NCBI GenBank assembly: GCA_026981635.1 | Contig: JALSIF010000008.1 | Location: 1-6,767 of the forward strand | From: JALSIF01 sp026981635 [NCBI: bacterium] | GTDB taxonomy: Bacteria > 4484-113 > JALSIF01 | Direction of reading: 5' to 3' | DNA: 6,767 bases | In this document: positions 1-6,767 of the stretch, one piece after another | Position numbering within the stretch: the stretch's first letter is position 1 | Layout: every line of letters begins with the position of its first letter | The notes under the pieces: model-generated | Told to the model about the DNA's origin: nothing | The model's input: only the letters and a program-made list of their open reading frames with translations | Database searches by the model: none | Program-made: the position numbers and the translations under genes

Positions 1-1622
1 ACCCCGACGAGACGCCCGCCGGAGTGCTGGAAAAGGCCGGCCACATAAGCCTTGAATCGGTCATCCGGGTGGAGGGGGTGCTGCGCCTTCGCGTTGAGGA
101 GCAGCGCCGGTCAGGGGAGCTAAACGGCGACCGTGAGCTGGTGGTCCATGAGCTTGAGGTGCTCTCCGCCGCAAGCCCCCTGCCCCTGCGCATCGCCGAC
201 GATGCGGGGGCGGACGAGCTTACCCGGCTGAGATTCCGCTACCTGGACCTGCGCCGCCCACCCCTCCACCGGGCCATGAGCCTGCGCCACCGGGTCGTGC
301 TTACCATCCGAAACTACTTTGACCGGCTGGGCTTCATTGAGGTGGAGACCCCCATGCTTGGCCGCTCAACCCCGGAGGGGGCCCGTGACTACCTGGTCCC
401 CAGCCGGGTGCACAAGGGCAAGTTCTACGCCCTCCCCCAGTCTCCCCAGCTCTACAAGCAGCTTCTTATGGTTGCGGGCTACGACCGCTACTTCCAGATC
501 GCCCGCTGCCTGCGGGATGAGGACCTTAGGGCAGACCGCCAGCCGGAGCACACTCAGGTGGATGTGGAGGTCTCCTTTGCCACCCGCGACGAGCTGTTTG
601 CCATCGGCGAGGGGATGTTTGCCGAGGTCTTCCGCCAGGTGCTTAGCGAGGAGCTTGAGCTTCCCTTCCCCCGCCTCACCTACGACCAGGTGATCCGCCG
701 CTTCGGCTCAGACAAGCCAGATCTGCGCTACGGCCTTGAGATCACCGACCTCACCGACTGGGCAAGGGAGTGCGGGCTGAACTTCATTGAGAAGCTGGTC
801 GCCGAGGGGGCCGCCTGTCTCGCCCTGGCGGTGGAAGAGGTGATGAGCCGAAGCCAGGTTGAGCGGCTGGAGAGGAAGCTTAAGGAGCTTGGCTCCCCCG
901 GCCTTGCCTGGCTGGCCTTTGCCGAGGGCGAGCGGCGCGGGGCCATCTCCCGGGGGATGAGGGACCAGGCGGCAGATCGCCTGAGGGAGCTGGTGGGCCT
1001 TGCAGACAGCGGCACCGTTCTATTCCAGATCGGAAGCGGCGAGACCCCCTACCGCCTGCTGGGAGAACTGAGAAATCTCCTCATCAAAGAGCTTGACCTT
1101 GAGCCAGAGCGAAAATGGGCCTTCCTCTGGGTAGTGGACTTTCCCCTCTTTGAGCCCGACGACGAGGCCCCCCGGGGAATCAGCCCCTCCCACCACCCCT
1201 TTACCATGCCCCGACTGGAGGATCTGGAAAAGCTTTCTTCCGACGACCCGGCCGAGCTTCTCTCCATCCGCGCCGACTGCTACGACCTGGTGCTCAATGG
1301 CAGCGAGCTGGGCTCGGGGAGTCTCCGGGTCTGGCAGCCCGAGGTGCAGCGGAAGATCTTTGCCGGCATTGGACTTTCCCCCGCCGAGGCGGAGGAGAAG
1401 TTTGGCTGGTTCCTGGAGGCCTTCCGCTACGGCGCCCCACCCCACCGGGGCTTTGCCCTGGGCCTGGACCGCATCGTCGCATTGCTTGGCGGCTACCCCT
1501 CCATCCGCGATGTGATCGCCTTTCCCAAGACGGCAAGCGCATCAGACCCCATGACCGGCGCCCCCGCCGAGGTGGACCCCGCCCAGCTAAGGGAGCTTGG
1601 CATCCTCCTGGAGGGGGAGTAG
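1..1622 (+). CDS. aspS: Aspartyl-tRNA synthetase, bacterial type, 5'-truncated by the window edge
   Basis: This cytoplasmic class II aminoacyl-tRNA synthetase charges tRNA-Asp with aspartate using ATP. The reading frame is open from base 3 with no stop, and about 540 residues are visible. The usual bacterial length is near 590, so most of the N-terminal OB-fold anticodon-binding domain lies off the window. The GTG at 24 is only an internal valine codon and not a credible start. Class II motif 1 is near 273-356. Motif 2 (FQIARCLRDEDLRADRQPE) is near 492-548 and gives the ATP and aspartate pocket. The bacterial-specific GAD insertion spans roughly 771-1058. NGSELGSGSLRV is near 1296-1331. Motif 3 (GFALGLDRIVALL) is near 1449-1487, and the typical tail IRDVIAFPKTASASDPMTGAP follows. 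The GAD insertion identifies the bacterial and not the archaeal/eukaryotic form. Whether it is discriminating or also charges tRNA-Asn cannot be judged, because the deciding N-terminal residues are missing. TAG stop at 1620-1622. Confidence 0.97.
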   Translation, partial: PDETPAGVLEKAGHISLESVIRVEGVLRLRVEEQRRSGELNGDRELVVHELEVLSAASPLPLRIADDAGADELTRLRFRYLDLRRPPLHRAMSLRHRVVLTIRNYFDRLGFIEVETPMLGRSTPEGARDYLVPSRVHKGKFYALPQSPQLYKQLLMVAGYDRYFQIARCLRDEDLRADRQPEHTQVDVEVSFATRDELFAIGEGMFAEVFRQVLSEELELPFPRLTYDQVIRRFGSDKPDLRYGLEITDLTDWARECGLNFIEKLVAEGAACLALAVEEVMSRSQVERLERKLKELGSPGLAWLAFAEGERRGAISRGMRDQAADRLRELVGLADSGTVLFQIGSGETPYRLLGELRNLLIKELDLEPERKWAFLWVVDFPLFEPDDEAPRGISPSHHPFTMPRLEDLEKLSSDDPAELLSIRADCYDLVLNGSELGSGSLRVWQPEVQRKIFAGIGLSPAEAEEKFGWFLEAFRYGAPPHRGFALGLDRIVALLGGYPSIRDVIAFPKTASASDPMTGAPAEVDPAQLRELGILLEGE

Positions 1623-1645
1623 GCCGCCCCTGCCCATTGGCGGTC

Positions 1646-1651
1646 TAGAAT
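1646..1651 (+). promoter_or_regulatory. Candidate -10 element (TAGAAT) for leaderless transcription of the mutase gene
   Basis: TAGAAT matches the TANNNT -10 pattern and ends six bases before the GTG at 1658. Transcription would then begin at or next to the start codon. No Shine-Dalgarno sequence is present before that GTG (the bases just before it are TGGCCC), which agrees with a leaderless message. I see no convincing -35 hexamer at 16-18 bases upstream. The hexamer also contains the in-frame TAG that limits the mutase start. A single hexamer match can arise by chance, so this is tentative. Confidence 0.35.
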
Positions 1652-1657
1652 TGGCCC

Positions 1658-3064
1658 GTGTCCTCCCCACTCAGGTTCGGCACCGACGGCTGGCGGGCGG
1701 TAATCGGCTTTGAGTTCACCGGCCAGAACCTTCTCCGAGTAATAAACGCCATCCACCAGTGGCTGGAGGAGGCTGGTGAGGAGGGGGAGCTGGTGGTGGG
1801 CTACGACAACCGCTTCAATGCCGAGCTGTTTGCCGAGCTTACTGCCCGTCGACTGAGCCAACTTGGTTGGGAGGTGGTCCTCGCAGACCGCCCCACTCCC
1901 ACTCCGGTTATCGCCTACACCGTGATGGAGCGGGAGATGGCCGGTGGCCTGATGCTTACCGCCAGCCACAACCAGCCCCACTGGCTGGGACTAAAGCTTA
2001 TCCCCCGCGGCGGGGTGCCTGCCCCAAGCGACACCACCGCCAGGATCGAAGAGCTCATCGCCGAGCAGCGGCCCGATCCCGACCTGGTGGGCCGCCTGAT
2101 TAGTGATCCCGAACCCCTGAGGAGGGAGGACCTCTCCCCTCCCTACCTCGCCCACCTGGAGAGGCTAATTGACTTTGGCGCCATAAGTGAGCTAACCCAG
2201 CCCATCTACCTCAACTACCAGCACGGGGCGGCCATCGGCTGGGTGGCCCCGCTTATGGCAAAGCACGGTATAGAGGTGGTTGAGCTTCGAGAAGACCCCG
2301 ACCCCCTGTTTGGCGGCTGCCAGCCCGACCCCACCCGGGAGAACCTGCTCGCCGACTGGGCGGACAACCAAATTGAACAGGGCATCATGGTGGCCTTTGA
2401 CGGTGACGGCGACCGGGTGGGCATCCTGGAGGACGGCACCTTATATCTCACCGGCAACGAGCTCATCCCCCTGATGGGCGACTTTCTCCTCTCCCGCGGT
2501 CAGGATGGCCCCCTGGCCAGGAACGTGGCCACCAGCCACCTGGTGGACCGGGTAAGCGAGGCCCACGGCCACCGGGTAATGGAGACCAAGGTGGGCTTCA
2601 AATACCTGGGGCCCGCTCTCCTTAGGGGAGCGGTGGTGGCGGGAGAGGAGTCAGGGGGCATCTCGGCCCGCGAGCACGTTCCCGACAAGGACGGCATCTA
2701 TAGCGCCCTACGCTCCTTGGAGGCGGCCGCCCGCCACGGCTCCTTCCACCTGGCCATGGTAAGGCTTTGGGAAAGCTACGGAGAGAGCCATGCCGGGCGC
2801 CGCGACTATCGCCTTGCGCCGGAAAAGAAGGAACTCTGCTACCGGAGGCTTGCCACCCTCTCCTCGGGTGAACAGTTCCTAGGCCGGCGCATTTCGGCGG
2901 TAAACCGCCTGGACGGCATAAAGCTTATCTTCGGTGAGACCACCTGGATCTGCTTTCGGGCCTCCGGCACCGAGCCGGTGCTTAGGGTCTACGCCGAGGC
3001 GGAAACGATGGGTGAACTAGAGGCCCTTCAGCGCGAGGCGGGTGGCTTCATCGCTGATCTCTAG
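1658..3064 (+). CDS. Phosphoglucomutase/phosphomannomutase family protein (alpha-D-phosphohexomutase)
   Basis: This cytoplasmic enzyme of 468 residues would interconvert hexose 1- and 6-phosphates through a phosphoserine intermediate, feeding glycogen, cell-wall or nucleotide-sugar synthesis. All four family domains are recognisable. FGTDGWR is at residues 7-13. The catalytic loop TASHNQ has the phosphorylated serine at S103. The metal loop DGDGDR is at 248-253, with D248, D250 and D252 as Mg ligands. The sugar loop GEESGG is at 329-334. The phosphate-binding loop RASGTEP is at 434-440. GEESGG and the neighbouring VGFKYLGP and HVPDKDGI resemble the prokaryotic PGM/PMM-like group more than phosphoglucosamine mutase GlmM, but substrate preference is inferred. 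GTG at 1658 is the only possible start, since an in-frame TAG sits at 1646-1648 and the conserved N-terminus begins seven residues in. It follows aspS by 35 bases. The catalytic loop has Q where most members have P, and L-G where N-G is usual. Confidence 0.93.
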   Translation: MSSPLRFGTDGWRAVIGFEFTGQNLLRVINAIHQWLEEAGEEGELVVGYDNRFNAELFAELTARRLSQLGWEVVLADRPTPTPVIAYTVMEREMAGGLMLTASHNQPHWLGLKLIPRGGVPAPSDTTARIEELIAEQRPDPDLVGRLISDPEPLRREDLSPPYLAHLERLIDFGAISELTQPIYLNYQHGAAIGWVAPLMAKHGIEVVELREDPDPLFGGCQPDPTRENLLADWADNQIEQGIMVAFDGDGDRVGILEDGTLYLTGNELIPLMGDFLLSRGQDGPLARNVATSHLVDRVSEAHGHRVMETKVGFKYLGPALLRGAVVAGEESGGISAREHVPDKDGIYSALRSLEAAARHGSFHLAMVRLWESYGESHAGRRDYRLAPEKKELCYRRLATLSSGEQFLGRRISAVNRLDGIKLIFGETTWICFRASGTEPVLRVYAEAETMGELEALQREAGGFIADL

Positions 3065-3072
3065 CCGGCTAG
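3061..3072. repeat. Perfect 12-base palindrome holding both convergent stop codons
   Basis: CTAGCCGGCTAG is its own reverse complement. On the plus strand it contains the TAG stop of the mutase at 3062-3064. On the minus strand it contains the TAG stop of the lipoprotein at 3069-3071. The two genes converge with four bases between stops, so neither has room for a separate terminator before entering the other gene. No T-run follows on either strand, so this is not a classical intrinsic terminator. Confidence 0.8.
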
Positions 3073-4295
3073 CGGGAGGGTGTACCGCCGGGTGGCGGCC
3101 ATCCCCAGGCAGGGTAGATCTGGCGGGCGACCAGCTCGCCGTGGCGCTCAATCACCAGCACTCCCACCAGCCGGTCGGGCCTTAGCTCGTCCAGCCGGAT
3201 GCCAATTAGCCGGGTAAAGCCAGGCACCAGTTTAATCTCCAACATCCTGCCCTGGTCAACCGCCGCCGCCGCGGGTCGCACCACCTTTAGTCCCATCAGG
3301 TGGGGACCGATGAGCTTGGGGAAGCCCACCAGGAAACCGGGGTGACCATCCAGGTTGGGGTCGGGATATAGAGGTTCGCCGGGGTCTCTTACCCCGTTGC
3401 CGTTGAGGTCATTGAAAGCCTCCCGCCGCCTGCGGTCAATCACCTTGCGCTCCACCAGACGGGCGGGAAAGTCGGGCGCAAAGAAACCGTCTCGGGGGAA
3501 GCTGGGGGGAAGGGTACGAGAGGGTCTACCCGGAACTAAGCCTCCCTTCCCTGGCCGGGGAAACTCCCTACCTGCCGCGTCAATGAAGCCCCGCTTCACC
3601 TCCACCAGCAAGCGGGAGGAAAGCAGGCGCTTGTCCCCCACCTGTAATGCAGCACCCACCGGGCGGAGGATGATGTCCAGTCGGGTGACCTTGCCCGTCT
3701 CAACCCCAACCGGGAAGATGAGCTTGACCAGCTGTCGCCTGATGGGCGGTGGTTCTGCCTGGGACAGCTGACTGTCTCCCTCCGGCGCCACCGCCGAGTA
3801 GAACTCCACCACCAGGAGATGCTCTTCCTGGCCGTCAGTGGCGGGCACGCCGGTGAAGGCGTAGGTTCCATCGTCGGTGATGGCGATGGGGGTGAGCAGG
3901 TCACCGATTTGGGGCGGCCCGGAGTTTCCGATCTCCTCCCCCGGGTCAACGATCACCGCTCCCATCACCCCCACCAACCCCACCTCCTCGGGCAGGGGAA
4001 AGAAGAGCAGGTCGTCTGGCGAAAGCTCCCCCGTATGGTCGCCCCCCTCCAGGGCAGTTTCTAGGCTCTCCCCTGGTGCTAGGTCGGGTAAGCTTCCCTG
4101 GTGGGGGACCAGTGGAATAGCCGGGTCAATCACAATGCGGCCCACCACCGCTCCACTCTCCACCTCCCCGGAAGGGGTGGGCGTGGGAGTGGTTCCCGCT
4201 TCTCCGCCTCCCCCACCACCACAGGCAGTGCTAAGCAGGGCTAGCCATAGAGTCGCCAGCCAGACCACTGCCAACCTGCCCAGCCTTGCTCTCAT
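3069..4295 (-). CDS. Secreted lipoprotein of unknown function with an EF-hand-like calcium loop
   Basis: I do not recognise the family. The 408-residue protein has a basic N-terminus (MRARLGR), a hydrophobic stretch at residues 8-21 and a lipobox-like LSTAC with the acceptor cysteine at C25. Six glycines and a TTPTPTPS linker follow, so it is probably lipidated and exposed outside the cytoplasmic membrane. Residues 45-210 look beta-rich. DDGTYAFTGVPA at 141-152 resembles carboxypeptidase-regulatory-like or other Ig-like folds. FNDLNGNGVRDPGE at 294-307 fits a calcium-binding loop with ligands at D296, N298, N300, D304 and E307, and a weaker copy follows at 312-318. No catalytic motif is visible. 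The ATG overlaps the mocR stop codon (ATGA, 4292-4295), which points to one transcript and translational coupling. The nearest AAGGAG (minus strand, 4307-4312) is 11 bases upstream, inside mocR. It ends four bases from the convergent mutase. Confidence 0.85.
   Translation of the reverse strand: MRARLGRLAVVWLATLWLALLSTACGGGGGGEAGTTPTPTPSGEVESGAVVGRIVIDPAIPLVPHQGSLPDLAPGESLETALEGGDHTGELSPDDLLFFPLPEEVGLVGVMGAVIVDPGEEIGNSGPPQIGDLLTPIAITDDGTYAFTGVPATDGQEEHLLVVEFYSAVAPEGDSQLSQAEPPPIRRQLVKLIFPVGVETGKVTRLDIILRPVGAALQVGDKRLLSSRLLVEVKRGFIDAAGREFPRPGKGGLVPGRPSRTLPPSFPRDGFFAPDFPARLVERKVIDRRRREAFNDLNGNGVRDPGEPLYPDPNLDGHPGFLVGFPKLIGPHLMGLKVVRPAAAAVDQGRMLEIKLVPGFTRLIGIRLDELRPDRLVGVLVIERHGELVARQIYPAWGWPPPGGTPSR
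3375..3410 (-). other. EF-hand-like calcium-binding loop in the lipoprotein
   Basis: The twelve residues 296-307 follow the DxNxNGxxDxxE pattern, with acidic or amide side chains at loop positions 1, 3, 5, 9 and 12. Such loops occur in secreted adhesins of the SdrD B-repeat type, dockerins and thrombospondin-like repeats. A degenerate copy (DPNLDG, residues 312-317) lies just downstream. Calcium binding is inferred from the pattern alone. Confidence 0.6.
4221..4295 (-). other. Lipoprotein signal peptide and acceptor cysteine
   Basis: Residues 1-24 show a positively charged N-region, a hydrophobic core rich in W, L and A, and the lipobox LSTA followed by C25. Serine at -3 is less usual than L, V or I. 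The run of glycines after the cysteine is typical of lipoproteins in several high-GC phyla. Cleavage by signal peptidase II after A24 is predicted. Confidence 0.75.
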
Positions 4296-5773
4296 CCCGA
4301 AAGAAGCTCCTTGAGAACTCTACCCAGCCGCTCAATCCCCGGCTCAATCATATCCGCCGGCACCATGGAAAAGGCCACTCTCAAGCCGGGCCCGTCCGCT
4401 CGGTGATAGTTGAAGTAGTTGTAGACGCCTGCCTCCACCAGGTTCTCCCGCATGCGCTCCAGCGCCTCCTCGCCGCTTAGCTTCTCTGGCAGCCTGAGCC
4501 ACACGAAGAACCCCCCCTCCGGGGCTCGGAAGTTCACCCCATCAGGTAGGTGTTTTCTGAGCGCACTGAGTGTCAGCGAGAGCTTGTGCTCGTAGAGCCG
4601 GCGGATGCGCCCTAGATGCTTTCGCCAGAAGCCCTTGCGCATAAACTGCTCAAGCAGGACATGGAAGAAGGCGGGATTCCCCTTGTCCACCGCCCGCTTG
4701 AGCCTCACCAGGGAGAGTGCGATCTCCCGCGGGACCACCATATAGCCGATGCGAAGTCCGGGCAGGAGCGACTTGGAAAAGCTCCTTACCAGGATGACCG
4801 CCCCCGCCTCGTCCAGTGCCTTCAGGGTGGGGTGGGCCATTCCCCGGTAATGGAGATCTGAGGCATAGTCATCCTCCAGGATGGGCACCTGATGGCGCGC
4901 GCAGATGCGAATGAGCTCCATGCGCGCCTCGGTACCCATGGTCACCGTGGTGGGGTTGTGGAGGGTGGGAGTCACCACCACCAGCCGCACATCACCTCTC
5001 CTTAGCCTGCGCTCAAGCCTGGCCAGGTCAACCCCCTCCTCCCCCACCGGGACGGTGTAGGTGCGGAAGTGCTTCGCCTTGACCAGGGTGATGGTGGCGT
5101 TGTAGGTGGGCTCTTCAATCACCATCGCCGTCCCCGGCTCAACCAGCAGGGAGGTGACCAGGTCCAGCGCTTGCTGGAAGCCCATCGTCACCACCACTAC
5201 ATTGCGCCCCATGTCTATCCCGTCCAGCTCGCACTCCTCATGGAGCAGATCCAGCAGGGGCGGATAGCCCTGGGGGTTGGAGTAGTCAAAGTAGTAGTGC
5301 TCCGGCTTCCAAAGCAGGTTGGTGGAGATGCGCTTGATCTCCTCAAAGGGGAAGGAGCTGGGGTCGGGCAGCGCCTGGGTGAAGCGGATGGTTCCCTCGG
5401 GCAGGCGCTCGCGGGGAAGGGCCGAGTAGAAGCGCATCTCCAGCATGAACTTTGACCAATCAATGGCGGCTGGCCGCGGGGGCTCCTCCTTAGGGGGAGG
5501 CTCCTCTTCCCCAAACAGCTCCTTTACCTCGTAGACCTCACGGCTGACAAAGGTGCCCGAGCCGGTGCGGCTCTCCAGCCAGTGGTTGGCGATGAGCTCA
5601 TCGTAGGCACGGCTCACCGTGCGTCGGGAGACCCCCAGCAGGCGGGCCAGCTCACGGCTGGGTGGCAACCGCTGGCCCGGTTTCAGGGTCCCCTCCCTTA
5701 TGAGCTCAATGATCCGCTGGTAGATCTGGCGGTAGACGGGGACCTCGCTTGCTCGGTCAATCTTGATAAACAC
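4292..5773 (-). CDS. MocR-subfamily GntR transcription regulator with aminotransferase-like PLP domain
   Basis: This 493-residue protein is a PLP-dependent transcription factor of the GntR/MocR family. Residues 1-78 form the winged helix-turn-helix (LPPSRELARLLGVSRRTVSRAYDEL at 36-60, wing SRTGSGTFVS at 68-77). Residues 79-105 are a Glu/Pro-rich linker. Residues 125-493 are a fold-type I aminotransferase domain. SFSKSLLPGLRIGY carries the predicted PLP lysine K334 and a conserved arginine R341. EDDYASDLHY at 300-309 gives D301 and Y303, which should contact the cofactor ring. R465 in GPGLRVAF may bind a ligand carboxylate. HNPTT at 272-276 and the segment after GVYNYFNYH differ from common MocR forms, so the effector may differ as well. 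GTG at 5773 follows GGGGGAG (5780-5786) by six bases. It heads a two-gene unit with the lipoprotein and is divergent from the kinase. The effector is unknown, and no transporter, aminotransferase or pdx gene adjoins it. Confidence 0.93.
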   Translation of the reverse strand: MFIKIDRASEVPVYRQIYQRIIELIREGTLKPGQRLPPSRELARLLGVSRRTVSRAYDELIANHWLESRTGSGTFVSREVYEVKELFGEEEPPPKEEPPRPAAIDWSKFMLEMRFYSALPRERLPEGTIRFTQALPDPSSFPFEEIKRISTNLLWKPEHYYFDYSNPQGYPPLLDLLHEECELDGIDMGRNVVVVTMGFQQALDLVTSLLVEPGTAMVIEEPTYNATITLVKAKHFRTYTVPVGEEGVDLARLERRLRRGDVRLVVVTPTLHNPTTVTMGTEARMELIRICARHQVPILEDDYASDLHYRGMAHPTLKALDEAGAVILVRSFSKSLLPGLRIGYMVVPREIALSLVRLKRAVDKGNPAFFHVLLEQFMRKGFWRKHLGRIRRLYEHKLSLTLSALRKHLPDGVNFRAPEGGFFVWLRLPEKLSGEEALERMRENLVEAGVYNYFNYHRADGPGLRVAFSMVPADMIEPGIERLGRVLKELLSG

Positions 5774-5779
5774 CGCAAT

Positions 5780-5786
5780 CTCCCCC
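5780..5786 (-). promoter_or_regulatory. Ribosome binding site of the mocR-type gene
   Basis: On the minus strand GGGGGAG sits six bases before the GTG at 5773. It is the only strong Shine-Dalgarno sequence at a transcription-unit start in this window, and it decides the GTG start just ahead of the conserved N-terminal helix. Confidence 0.65.
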
Positions 5787-5793
5787 GCTGCCT

Positions 5794-5823
5794 AATCTAA
5801 CCCCATCCAGCTAGGATTTCCAA
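5794..5823 (-). promoter_or_regulatory. Candidate promoter of the mocR-lipoprotein unit
   Basis: On the minus strand TTGGAA (5818-5823) and TAGATT (5794-5799) are separated by 18 bases, a fair match to a housekeeping sigma-70-type promoter. Transcription would start near 5787, giving a leader of about 14 bases that just includes the GGGGGAG ribosome site. The -35 hexamer overlaps the first copies of the repeat cluster at 5819-5865, which suggests autorepression. Confidence 0.5.
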
Positions 5824-5865
5824 TGACCAATAGGGTCCAATTTTCAGTGGTCCAATCTGGTCATT
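5819..5865. promoter_or_regulatory. Operator-like cluster of CCAAT direct repeats inside an inverted repeat
   Basis: Four CCAAT cores lie on the plus strand at 5820-5824, 5827-5831, 5837-5841 and 5852-5856. Two of them belong to identical GGTCCAAT copies (5834-5841 and 5849-5856), 15 bases apart. A third close copy, TGACCAAT, starts at 5824, ten bases before the first. The cluster is enclosed by a perfect inverted repeat, AATGACCA (5822-5829) and TGGTCATT (5858-5865). Sites of MocR regulators often combine direct and inverted repeats next to their own gene, so this is the likely binding site of the adjacent MocR protein. It overlaps the mocR -35 and lies about 40-90 bases upstream of the expected kinase transcription start. 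Confidence 0.6.
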
Positions 5866-5871
5866 CGCCGA

Positions 5872-5893
5872 GGGAGCGAACACACCTGCTCCC
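5872..5893. promoter_or_regulatory. Perfect 6-base inverted repeat just before the kinase -10
   Basis: GGGAGC (5872-5877) and GCTCCC (5888-5893) are exact reverse complements with ten bases between them. The element covers the place where a -35 box would be and ends one base before TACAAT. It could be a site for a second regulator or a substitute for a -35 box. There is no T-run after it, so it is not a terminator. Confidence 0.4.
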
Positions 5894-5894
5894 C

Positions 5895-5900
5895 TACAAT
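5895..5900 (+). promoter_or_regulatory. Candidate -10 element (TACAAT) of the kinase gene
   Basis: TACAAT is close to the TATAAT consensus and stands 13 bases before the GTG at 5914. The transcript would start near 5907 and carry a leader of only about seven bases, too short for a normal Shine-Dalgarno sequence, and none is visible. No TTGACA-like -35 lies at 16-18 bases upstream, where the GGGAGC inverted repeat is found instead. This suggests an activator-dependent promoter. Confidence 0.45.
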
Positions 5901-5913
5901 CTCACTTTGATAG

Positions 5914-6767
5914 GTGAGGGCGATCCCCAAGCAGATTGGCGACTACCGCATCCTGGAGGAGCTGGGCCGGGGCTCCATGGGGGTGGTGCTCAAGGGCGAG
6001 GCCCCCGACGGCACCCTGGTAGCCATCAAGGTCTTCAACCCCTCCGACGATCTAAGCCCCGGCCACAAGCTTGAGCTCCACGACCGCTTCCTGCAGGAGG
6101 CGAGGATCCTAAGCGAGATTGATCACCCCAACGTCGTCCACGTGCTGGCTTCGGGCCACACCGACGGCAGCGACTACATGGTGATGGAGTTCGTGGAGGG
6201 GTTCAACCTCAAGGAGCTTGCCCAGATGGGCCGCCGTTTTACGGTGGAGGAGGCGGTAGACATCATCAGGCAGGTACTGCTGGGGCTAGACGCCATCCAC
6301 CGCCACGGGGTAGTCCACCGGGACATCAAGCCCTCCAACATCATCCTGCGGCCCGACGGGACCGCGGTAATCACCGATTTCGGCATCGCCAGAAAGCTGA
6401 CCGAGAAAACCCTCGCCCGGGGTGATCATCTGCTCGGCACCCCCGCCTACATGGCTCCAGAGCAGATCACCGGTGGTCAGGTGGACCACCGGGCTGACAT
6501 CTATTCGGCCGGGGTGGTCCTCTATGAGCTCCTGACGGGAGAGCGAGCCTTCCCCGGCGACATCTCGGAGGCCCTCTACCGGGTGGTGAACGAGGATCCG
6601 GCTGACCCCCGCAGCTATCGGCCGGAGATTTCAACTGATCTGGTCATGGCGCTGGAGAAAGCACTGGCCAAAGACCCCGCCCGCCGCTTCGCCAGCGCGC
6701 TGGACTTCTACCACCGCCTGGAGCGGGCCCGGCTGGTGGAGCCCACTCCGGAACCTGCCAAGGGCGC
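5914..6767 (+). CDS. Hanks-type serine/threonine protein kinase, 3'-truncated by the window edge
   Basis: This eukaryotic-like protein kinase transfers phosphate from ATP to Ser/Thr residues of target proteins. The frame stays open to the window end, giving 284 residues and a complete kinase domain. Visible elements are the glycine loop LGRGSMGVV (17-25), VAIK with ATP-binding K39, the helix C glutamate E62 in FLQEA, the catalytic loop HRDIKPSN (135-142, base D137), DFG at 155-157 and GTPAYMAPEQ at 175-184. DIYSAGVVLYELLTG (195-209) is the helix F region. The domain ends near residue 272 and is followed by a Pro-rich stretch (EPTPEPAKG), probably a linker to a transmembrane or sensor region off the window. 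GTG at 5914 is the first possible start, since the codon directly before it is TAG (5911-5913), and conserved sequence begins at residue 9. The activation loop has few phosphorylatable residues. The gene is divergent from mocR and shares its 140-base control region. Confidence 0.95.
   Translation, partial: MRAIPKQIGDYRILEELGRGSMGVVLKGEAPDGTLVAIKVFNPSDDLSPGHKLELHDRFLQEARILSEIDHPNVVHVLASGHTDGSDYMVMEFVEGFNLKELAQMGRRFTVEEAVDIIRQVLLGLDAIHRHGVVHRDIKPSNIILRPDGTAVITDFGIARKLTEKTLARGDHLLGTPAYMAPEQITGGQVDHRADIYSAGVVLYELLTGERAFPGDISEALYRVVNEDPADPRSYRPEISTDLVMALEKALAKDPARRFASALDFYHRLERARLVEPTPEPAKG

What the first reader, a model, noticed from the sequence alone, without database searches (positions are those of the whole stretch)
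5774..5913. MocR regulator and Ser/Thr kinase share a GabR-like divergent control region
The two genes diverge from 140 bases that contain a structured repeat cluster. In the known Bacillus GabR case, a MocR protein represses its own gene and activates a divergent metabolic operon in response to GABA and PLP. Here the divergent gene is a Hanks-type kinase and the co-transcribed partner is a surface lipoprotein, with no transport, aminotransferase or PLP synthesis gene beside it. That would be an unusual wiring: a PLP-bound amino-compound sensor setting the level of a signalling kinase. The layout is seen directly. The regulatory link is inference.
Basis: partly seen in the sequence, partly recalled or inferred. 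Interest (0 to 1): 0.65.

Follow-up and report, generated by a model that had tools for sequence, protein, structure and literature searches.

The report
MocR regulator paired with surface lipoprotein
A vitamin-B6-type gene regulator does sit back to back with a signalling kinase here, but in related bacteria its constant companion is a lipoprotein gene, not the kinase, so the kinase link looks accidental while the regulator-lipoprotein pair looks like a real unit.

Summary
The layout is real. mocR (4292-5773, -) and a Hanks-type kinase (5914 onward, +, cut by the contig end) diverge from 140 bases holding a non-random box cluster at 5822-5865 that looks like a MocR operator. The proposed wiring to the kinase is not supported by comparison: none of 28 other MocR loci of the phylum as held (10 genomes) has a kinase in the stretch searched (three have little or no upstream sequence), none of the kinase's best matches in 9 genomes has a MocR nearby, and 7 of the 8 clear ones carry TATAAT just before the start. 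What is conserved is the other neighbour: all 29 MocRs found at E <= 1e-150 are followed on the same strand by a lipoprotein gene (28) or a homologue of one (1), mostly within 30 nt and often by an ATGA overlap, against 3 of 58 MocR loci taken as outside the phylum. Most partners are one related family, and regulator and lipoprotein trees agree (r = 0.78). Best reading: an autoregulated mocR-lipoprotein operon, one of a multi-copy set in a candidate phylum (one member's record is titled UBP7). Kinase control stays possible by position but unproven (about 0.2).

The parts
4292..5773 (-). mocR: GntR-type wHTH + aminotransferase-like PLP domain, GTG start, SD-like GGGGGAG
   Evidence: (K334 invariant in 14 aligned)
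3069..4295 (-). lipoprotein gene (408 aa, lipobox LLSTAC, Gly run, DLNGNG element), ATGA overlap with mocR stop: operon partner
   Evidence: profile match to the MocR-linked lipoprotein family, (weaker)
5822..5865 (.). box cluster: inverted arms AATGACCA/TGGTCATT enclosing two GGTCCAAT direct repeats 15 nt apart; probable MocR operator
5794..5823 (-). possible mocR promoter: TTGGAA (5823-5818), 17-18 nt, TTAGAT/TAGATT; overlaps the edge of the box cluster
   Evidence: read by eye; the strict scan found no promoter, so inference only
5895..5900 (+). TACAAT, probable -10 of the kinase gene, 13 nt before its GTG
   Evidence: TATAAT (7) or GATAAT (1) 12-30 nt before the start of homology in 8 of 8 best-match kinases; shuffle control
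5914..6767 (+). Hanks-type Ser/Thr kinase domain, open at the contig end (284 aa read)

Best explanation
5774-5913 is the control region of an autoregulated two-gene operon, mocR-lipoprotein. The MocR binds the boxes at 5822-5865 and, by homology, changes its grip when PLP and an amino compound meet in its aminotransferase-like pocket, so setting its own level and that of the lipoprotein translated from the overlapping reading frame. It is one of a set of regulator-lipoprotein cassettes spread through this candidate phylum (1 to 8 per genome in 9 of 10 genomes). The Hanks kinase is a separately conserved gene with its own promoter element that happens to lie on the other side in this genome. 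Shown: domains, layout, ATGA overlap, the phylum-wide pairing, non-random boxes. Inferred: PLP and ligand binding, binding of the boxes, autoregulation, surface location, absence of kinase control.
For: 29 MocRs at E <= 1e-150 in the 10 genomes, all among loci L032-L060. Next co-oriented gene: 4-nt overlap in 17 of 32 rows, all 17 ATGA; within 30 nt in 29 of 32. Lipoprotein signal in 30 of 31 against 39 of 185 other ORFs of the same loci; the miss, L060, is homologous to the L053 lipoprotein and matches the A3 profile, built without it, at E 1.1e-118. Taken as outside the phylum: 3 of 58 loci, 0 of the 8 with a gene within 30 nt. 28 of 32 partners form one BLAST-linked component; its two subfamilies match (hhalign 99%, E 2e-18) and the window's lipoprotein matches one (97%, E 4.8e-11, 232 columns). 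Tree distances of 28 pairs correlate at 0.78, largest of 5000 permutations 0.32; same nearest neighbour in 20 of 28. Before the 8 MocRs of the window's sister clade, TGGTA/TACCA boxes number 16 against 3.3 expected.
Against: No binding, transcript or ligand data. Tests for inverted repeats (Fisher P 0.17; the window itself P 0.83) and for repeated 6-mers (P 0.48) before 30 class mocR genes are not significant, so a box cluster is not shown for every cassette. The TGGTA motif was chosen after looking, and the sister-clade placing has support 0.70 only. BLAST alone does not link the window's lipoprotein to the family. Sister-genome pairs inflate the counts and the tree correlation. The lipobox call is my own rule, not SignalP; start codons and gaps come from a longest-frame rule.
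Confidence: 0.72

Rival explanations
1. One reading: the MocR represses itself and activates the divergent kinase, so an amino compound sets the level of a signalling kinase, GabR-like.
For: Only 140 nt between the starts; the boxes end 29 nt before the kinase's TACAAT, where an activator could sit, and no promoter with a good -35 was found. MocRs often activate a divergent gene (PMC5320631, passages). In four class loci the immediately divergent gene matches the A2 lipoprotein profile (E 7e-22, 8e-11, 4e-9, 1e-6), so the divergent slot may be a real target place.
Against: No kinase in 28 other class MocR loci; no MocR in 9 class kinase loci; 7 of 8 best-match kinases carry TATAAT in the last 35 nt (shuffles 0.03 on average, maximum 1 in 2000), with no TTGGACC-type box in up to 200 nt upstream. 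Their -35s look weak too (by eye).
Confidence: 0.2
2. It is a PdxR that controls vitamin B6 synthesis in trans; lipoprotein and kinase are bystanders.
For: Passes NCBI's PdxR model (344 bits, cut-off 320); all 14 aligned class MocRs match that model at E <= 1e-20.
Against: pdxS is on another contig (G000:C92) and no TTGGACC/GGTCCAA lies in the 2.2-3.6 kb held around pdxS in 10 of 10 genomes; up to 8 paralogues per genome, each with its own lipoprotein, do not fit one PLP-synthesis regulator. mocR followed by a pdxS-like gene was seen in L141 and L150 (pdxS by its sequence, recalled).
Confidence: 0.06
3. The box cluster is a chance feature and mocR is not autoregulated; only the mocR-lipoprotein pairing is meaningful.
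For: Group-wide repeat tests not significant; the window scores P 0.83 in the 12-nt inverted-repeat test.
Against: Chance of both exact 8-nt repeats in these 140 bases 0.3%. Two direct boxes plus one inverted is the commonest MocR operator type in a survey (32% of regulons, PMC5320631, passages); sister-clade MocRs carry TGGTACC-type boxes before their own genes, L035 with AATTGGTACCC.
Confidence: 0.15

Closest known systems
Bacillus subtilis GabR / gabTD divergon (MocR subfamily)
   Same: wHTH plus aminotransferase-like domain (phmmer to GabR chain 4n0b over residues 3-485, E 6.2e-38); divergent gene; direct and inverted boxes between (GabR boxes from PMC5320631, passages)
   Different: 174.5 bits against NCBI's GabR cut-off of 600; no gab genes; the conserved partner is a lipoprotein downstream, not a divergent metabolic operon
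PdxR (MocR-like PLP synthesis regulator)
   Same: passes NCBI's PdxR score (344 against 320)
   Different: no pdx gene beside it; pdxS elsewhere without the boxes
YczR-YczE divergons (PMC4944035, passages)
   Same: a MocR group defined by linkage to one family of envelope proteins of unknown function
   Different: YczE is a divergently encoded membrane protein; here the partner is a lipoprotein in the same operon; YczR score 235 against 487
DUF5666 / dockerin-type lipoproteins
   Same: 6 of 14 A2 members match DUF5666 and 5 of 13 A3 members Dockerin_1 at E <= 0.1
   Different: the window's lipoprotein has no Pfam match at E <= 0.001; linkage to a PLP regulator did not appear in the listings

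Membership tests
MocR subfamily of GntR regulators | N-terminal GntR wHTH and C-terminal fold-type-I aminotransferase domain in one protein | tested here: met
   PF00392 at 14-76, PF00155 at 183-483
MocR subfamily of GntR regulators | Schiff-base lysine and PLP residues kept | tested here: met
   N273, D301 and K334 invariant in 14, R341 at 90% or more (PLP roles recalled from aspartate aminotransferase)
MocR subfamily of GntR regulators | binds PLP and DNA | not testable with these tools
   needs protein
GabR | NCBI GabR model cut-off | tested here: not met
   174.5 bits against 600
GabR | divergent gabT/gabD target | tested here: not met
   the divergent gene is a kinase
PdxR | NCBI PdxR model cut-off | tested here: met
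   344 against 320
PdxR | controls PLP synthesis genes | tested here: inconclusive
   pdxS on another contig, no matching boxes near it; trans control through another site not excluded
Hanks-type Ser/Thr kinase | Pkinase domain with HRDxK and DFG motifs (motifs recalled) | tested here: met
   HRDIKPSN and DFG readable
PASTA (PknB) kinase | C-terminal PASTA repeats, full model score | tested here: inconclusive
   262.7 against 450, but the gene is cut by the contig end
bacterial lipoprotein | signal peptide with lipobox cysteine | tested here: met
   own relaxed rule; the stricter rule missed it; SignalP not available

The most novel reading that the evidence does not exclude
In this candidate phylum the MocR fold has been turned into a dedicated surface switch: a multiplied set of PLP-dependent one-component regulators, each coupled to its own surface lipoprotein (often facing a second, divergent lipoprotein) and with its own diverged operator, remodels the cell surface in response to amino compounds. 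In this genome a Hanks kinase has come to occupy the divergent slot.
Probability: 0.4. Interest if true: 0.68.

Novelty: new variant of a known kind. Interest (0 to 1): 0.48.

Why it matters
Characterised MocR regulators control vitamin B6, GABA, taurine and ectoine metabolism (abstracts and passages of PMC5320631 and PMC8739950). A lineage in which they travel with lipoproteins would give this family a new kind of target, and it supplies many natural regulator-operator pairs for asking how MocR proteins read their boxes. It also gives a handle on a large, unstudied lipoprotein family known here only from metagenome assemblies. For the question as posed, it shows that a divergent neighbour seen once should not be read as a target.

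Tried and rejected
Kinase as conserved target: not supported. PdxR in trans: boxes sought near pdxS, none. Regulon elsewhere in the genome: pattern scans gave matches no more frequent than their controls; one search used a spacing one base too long and redid it; the 3-mismatch match at C315 lies inside a long open frame. General repeat tests before the class mocR genes: not significant. A single-protein scan of GTDB contigs found no relative; the alignment scan did. Structure of the window's lipoprotein: mean pLDDT 61, pTM 0.47; Foldseek gave no match at E <= 0.001, OB-fold CusF at E 0.048: too weak to use.

Limits: A2 and A3 were built from MocR-linked lipoproteins, so their strongest hits are their own rows and prove nothing; only non-members (L060, the divergent genes, the window's lipoprotein, orphans) inform. 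The A2 hit on the window's lipoprotein (E 2.6e-6) covers positions 7-122, signal peptide included, and other hits near E 8e-6 look like signal-peptide matches, so I lean. As a yardstick, the L034 lipoprotein gave E 1.3e-5 over only 19 columns. One search covered 32 loci, 28 of them other class MocR loci; L033 begins inside its mocR, and L053 and L051 have 316 and 526 nt upstream. Kinase locus L094 has 165 nt upstream, and the G009 kinase match (34% identity, 1180-aa frame) is not a clear orthologue; orthology is by best hit, no tree. Loci L003-L031 were not searched for kinases. One search left out the second, more distant MocR of L039, which one search shows followed at 69 nt by a gene with a lipoprotein-like start. 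One search left out L034, L059, L060 and that L039 pair. In one search the 58 loci include 15 with no co-oriented ORF of 90 aa within 400 nt (listed), counted as misses; they are taken as outside the phylum from titles and identity (36% or less). The divergent count (12 of 15) includes one doubtful case (L042). The kinase's TATAAT was noticed first and tested afterwards; the window itself has TACAAT.

Full report
What is in the window. The contig is exactly the window (6767 bases), from a 1.75 Mb, 317-contig genome, 85% complete. Genes: aspS (open at the contig start), a phosphoglucomutase/phosphomannomutase, a lipoprotein (-), mocR (-) and a Hanks kinase (+) cut by the contig end. The nearest relatives held are nine genomes of the same class, which are also the whole phylum as held.

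The control region. At 5822-5865 two GGTCCAAT repeats 15 nt apart lie inside perfect 8-nt inverted arms. Both arise in 0.3% of shuffles of the 140 bases. In the own genome the tandem box matches exactly only here. A survey gives two direct boxes plus one inverted as the most frequent MocR operator type (32% of regulons) and says that MocRs often repress themselves and activate a divergent gene (PMC5320631, passages). MocRs of the window's sister clade (support 0.70) carry TGGTACC-type boxes before their own genes, L035 with AATTGGTACCC; TGGTA/TACCA there numbers 16 against 3.3 expected (motif picked after looking). Over 30 class upstream regions general tests for inverted repeats and repeated 6-mers were not significant, the window included. 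So this is a probable MocR operator here and in the sister clade, not proven for the set. A strict promoter scan found nothing.

Is the kinase the target? Comparison says no. tblastn of the kinase (E <= 1e-6) over 32 loci, 28 of them other class MocR loci, found it only in the window (three of the 28 have little or no upstream sequence). The kinase has one clear best match in each of 8 class genomes (42-49% identity) and a poor one in G009; none of these 9 loci has a MocR in the stretch held. Of 80 GTDB loci of MocR relatives, some of them the same class loci, two have a kinase, L125 and L168, both downstream and co-oriented. The 8 clear matches carry TATAAT (7) or GATAAT (1) 12-30 nt before the start of homology, and no TTGGACC-type box in up to 200 nt; the window has TACAAT at the corresponding place. 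TATAAT in the last 35 nt is in 7 of 8 against 0.03 in shuffles, maximum 1 of 2000. The kinase thus seems to carry its own short-leader promoter wherever it lies. Against this: the window's boxes end 29 nt before that element, a place where an activator could act, and no same-family genome is held, so a recent capture is not excluded. The survey passage names a COG2334-family kinase in one GabR regulon (Bordetella avium); it is named there among metabolic genes, and I did not compare it.

What is conserved instead. One search found 29 MocRs at E <= 1e-150 in the 10 genomes (one cut by a contig end; 3 in the window's own genome; none in G009, 77% complete). They are loci L032-L060; L109 and L111 come from two further GTDB records. 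In one search (32 rows, one a more distant MocR) the next co-oriented gene overlaps by 4 nt in 17, all ATGA, and begins within 30 nt in 29; starts follow a longest-frame rule. In one search, 30 of 31 have a lipoprotein signal by a simple rule, against 39 of 185 other ORFs in the same loci; the stricter first rule flagged fewer (24 of 32). The miss, L060, is a homologue of the L053 lipoprotein (BLAST 52%) and matches the A3 profile, built without it, at E 1.1e-118. In 58 MocR loci taken as outside the phylum the same rule gave 3 within 400 nt, all more than 150 nt away, and 0 of the 8 with a gene within 30 nt. In the window's own genome it is 3 of 3.

The partners are related. 28 of 32 fall in one BLAST-linked component; the window's, L034, L059 and the distant L039 partner stay outside, L059 joining by phmmer. 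Short (A2) and long (A3) subfamilies match in profile comparison (99%, E 2e-18). The window's lipoprotein matches A2 at 97%, E 4.8e-11 over 232 columns (a pairwise E-value, not a database search). The 12 strongest A2 hits in the phylum all lie beside a MocR, but they are rows of A2 itself, so this is not independent; weaker hits include orphans (G000:C279 and G001:C28, where no MocR was found in the stretch held). Distances in the two trees correlate at 0.78 with a permutation maximum of 0.32 in 5000, and 20 of 28 pairs share the nearest neighbour; sister genomes contribute to both. In 12 of 15 class loci with a visible divergent ORF that ORF also has a lipoprotein signal (one doubtful), and in four the immediately divergent gene matches the A2 profile, two of them weakly and over the N-terminal part.

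Mechanism. Established knowledge of MocR proteins (recalled, and passages of PMC5320631) predicts that PLP plus an amino ligand changes the dimer's choice of boxes. Applied here: the MocR sits on 5822-5865, limits its own operon, and releases or activates it on ligand, so that the coupled lipoprotein rises with it. PLP residues are kept; one paralogue, L050, has lost the lysine. All steps shown are at the level of sequence.

Place among known kinds. It belongs to the MocR subfamily, is not GabR (174.5 against 600), and passes NCBI's PdxR score (344 against 320); all 14 aligned class MocRs match that model at 1e-20 (their bit scores not seen), so the name may be a default. The closest precedent is YczR-YczE, a MocR group defined by linkage to a membrane protein (PMC4944035, passages). 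No paper on MocR with lipoproteins or with a divergent protein kinase appeared in the listings (20 of 21 hits listed; 2 of 2, both on fungal MoCRZ1 or similar; 15 of 38; 3 of 3; 8 of 9); the library holds only openly licensed PMC papers.

Noticed in passing
L161, L165, L176 (Schekmanbacteria, Eisenbacteria, Fermentibacteria records): mocR is followed at -47, +1 and -11 nt by similar proteins with LELKDxITYGPVRSRRLGxSLGIN-like starts (radical-SAM-like by recall): another MocR pairing across three phyla.
   Followed up: no
L168 (Pseudanabaena frigida), after 4864: A Hanks-like kinase frame follows mocR on the same strand 72 nt downstream: a possible mocR-kinase operon.
   Followed up: no
L050, MocR from 6073: This paralogue has SSYGMC at the PLP lysine motif, so the lysine is lost; its sister L054 has GSYSKC.
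   Followed up: no
L034 (G000:C158), 3239-5389: Third mocR of the window's genome is followed at 23 nt by a 717-aa lipoprotein of another type, with repeats that look like carboxypeptidase-regulatory domains (by eye).
   Followed up: partly
L183 (G000:C279), 1612-3474: Orphan lipoprotein with several A2-profile (DUF5666-like) stretches and a long acidic tail; no MocR found on this 10.6 kb contig.
   Followed up: partly
   Followed up: no
L091-L098, kinase starts: Start codons lie so close to TATAAT that the kinase message is probably leaderless or nearly so across the class.
   Followed up: partly
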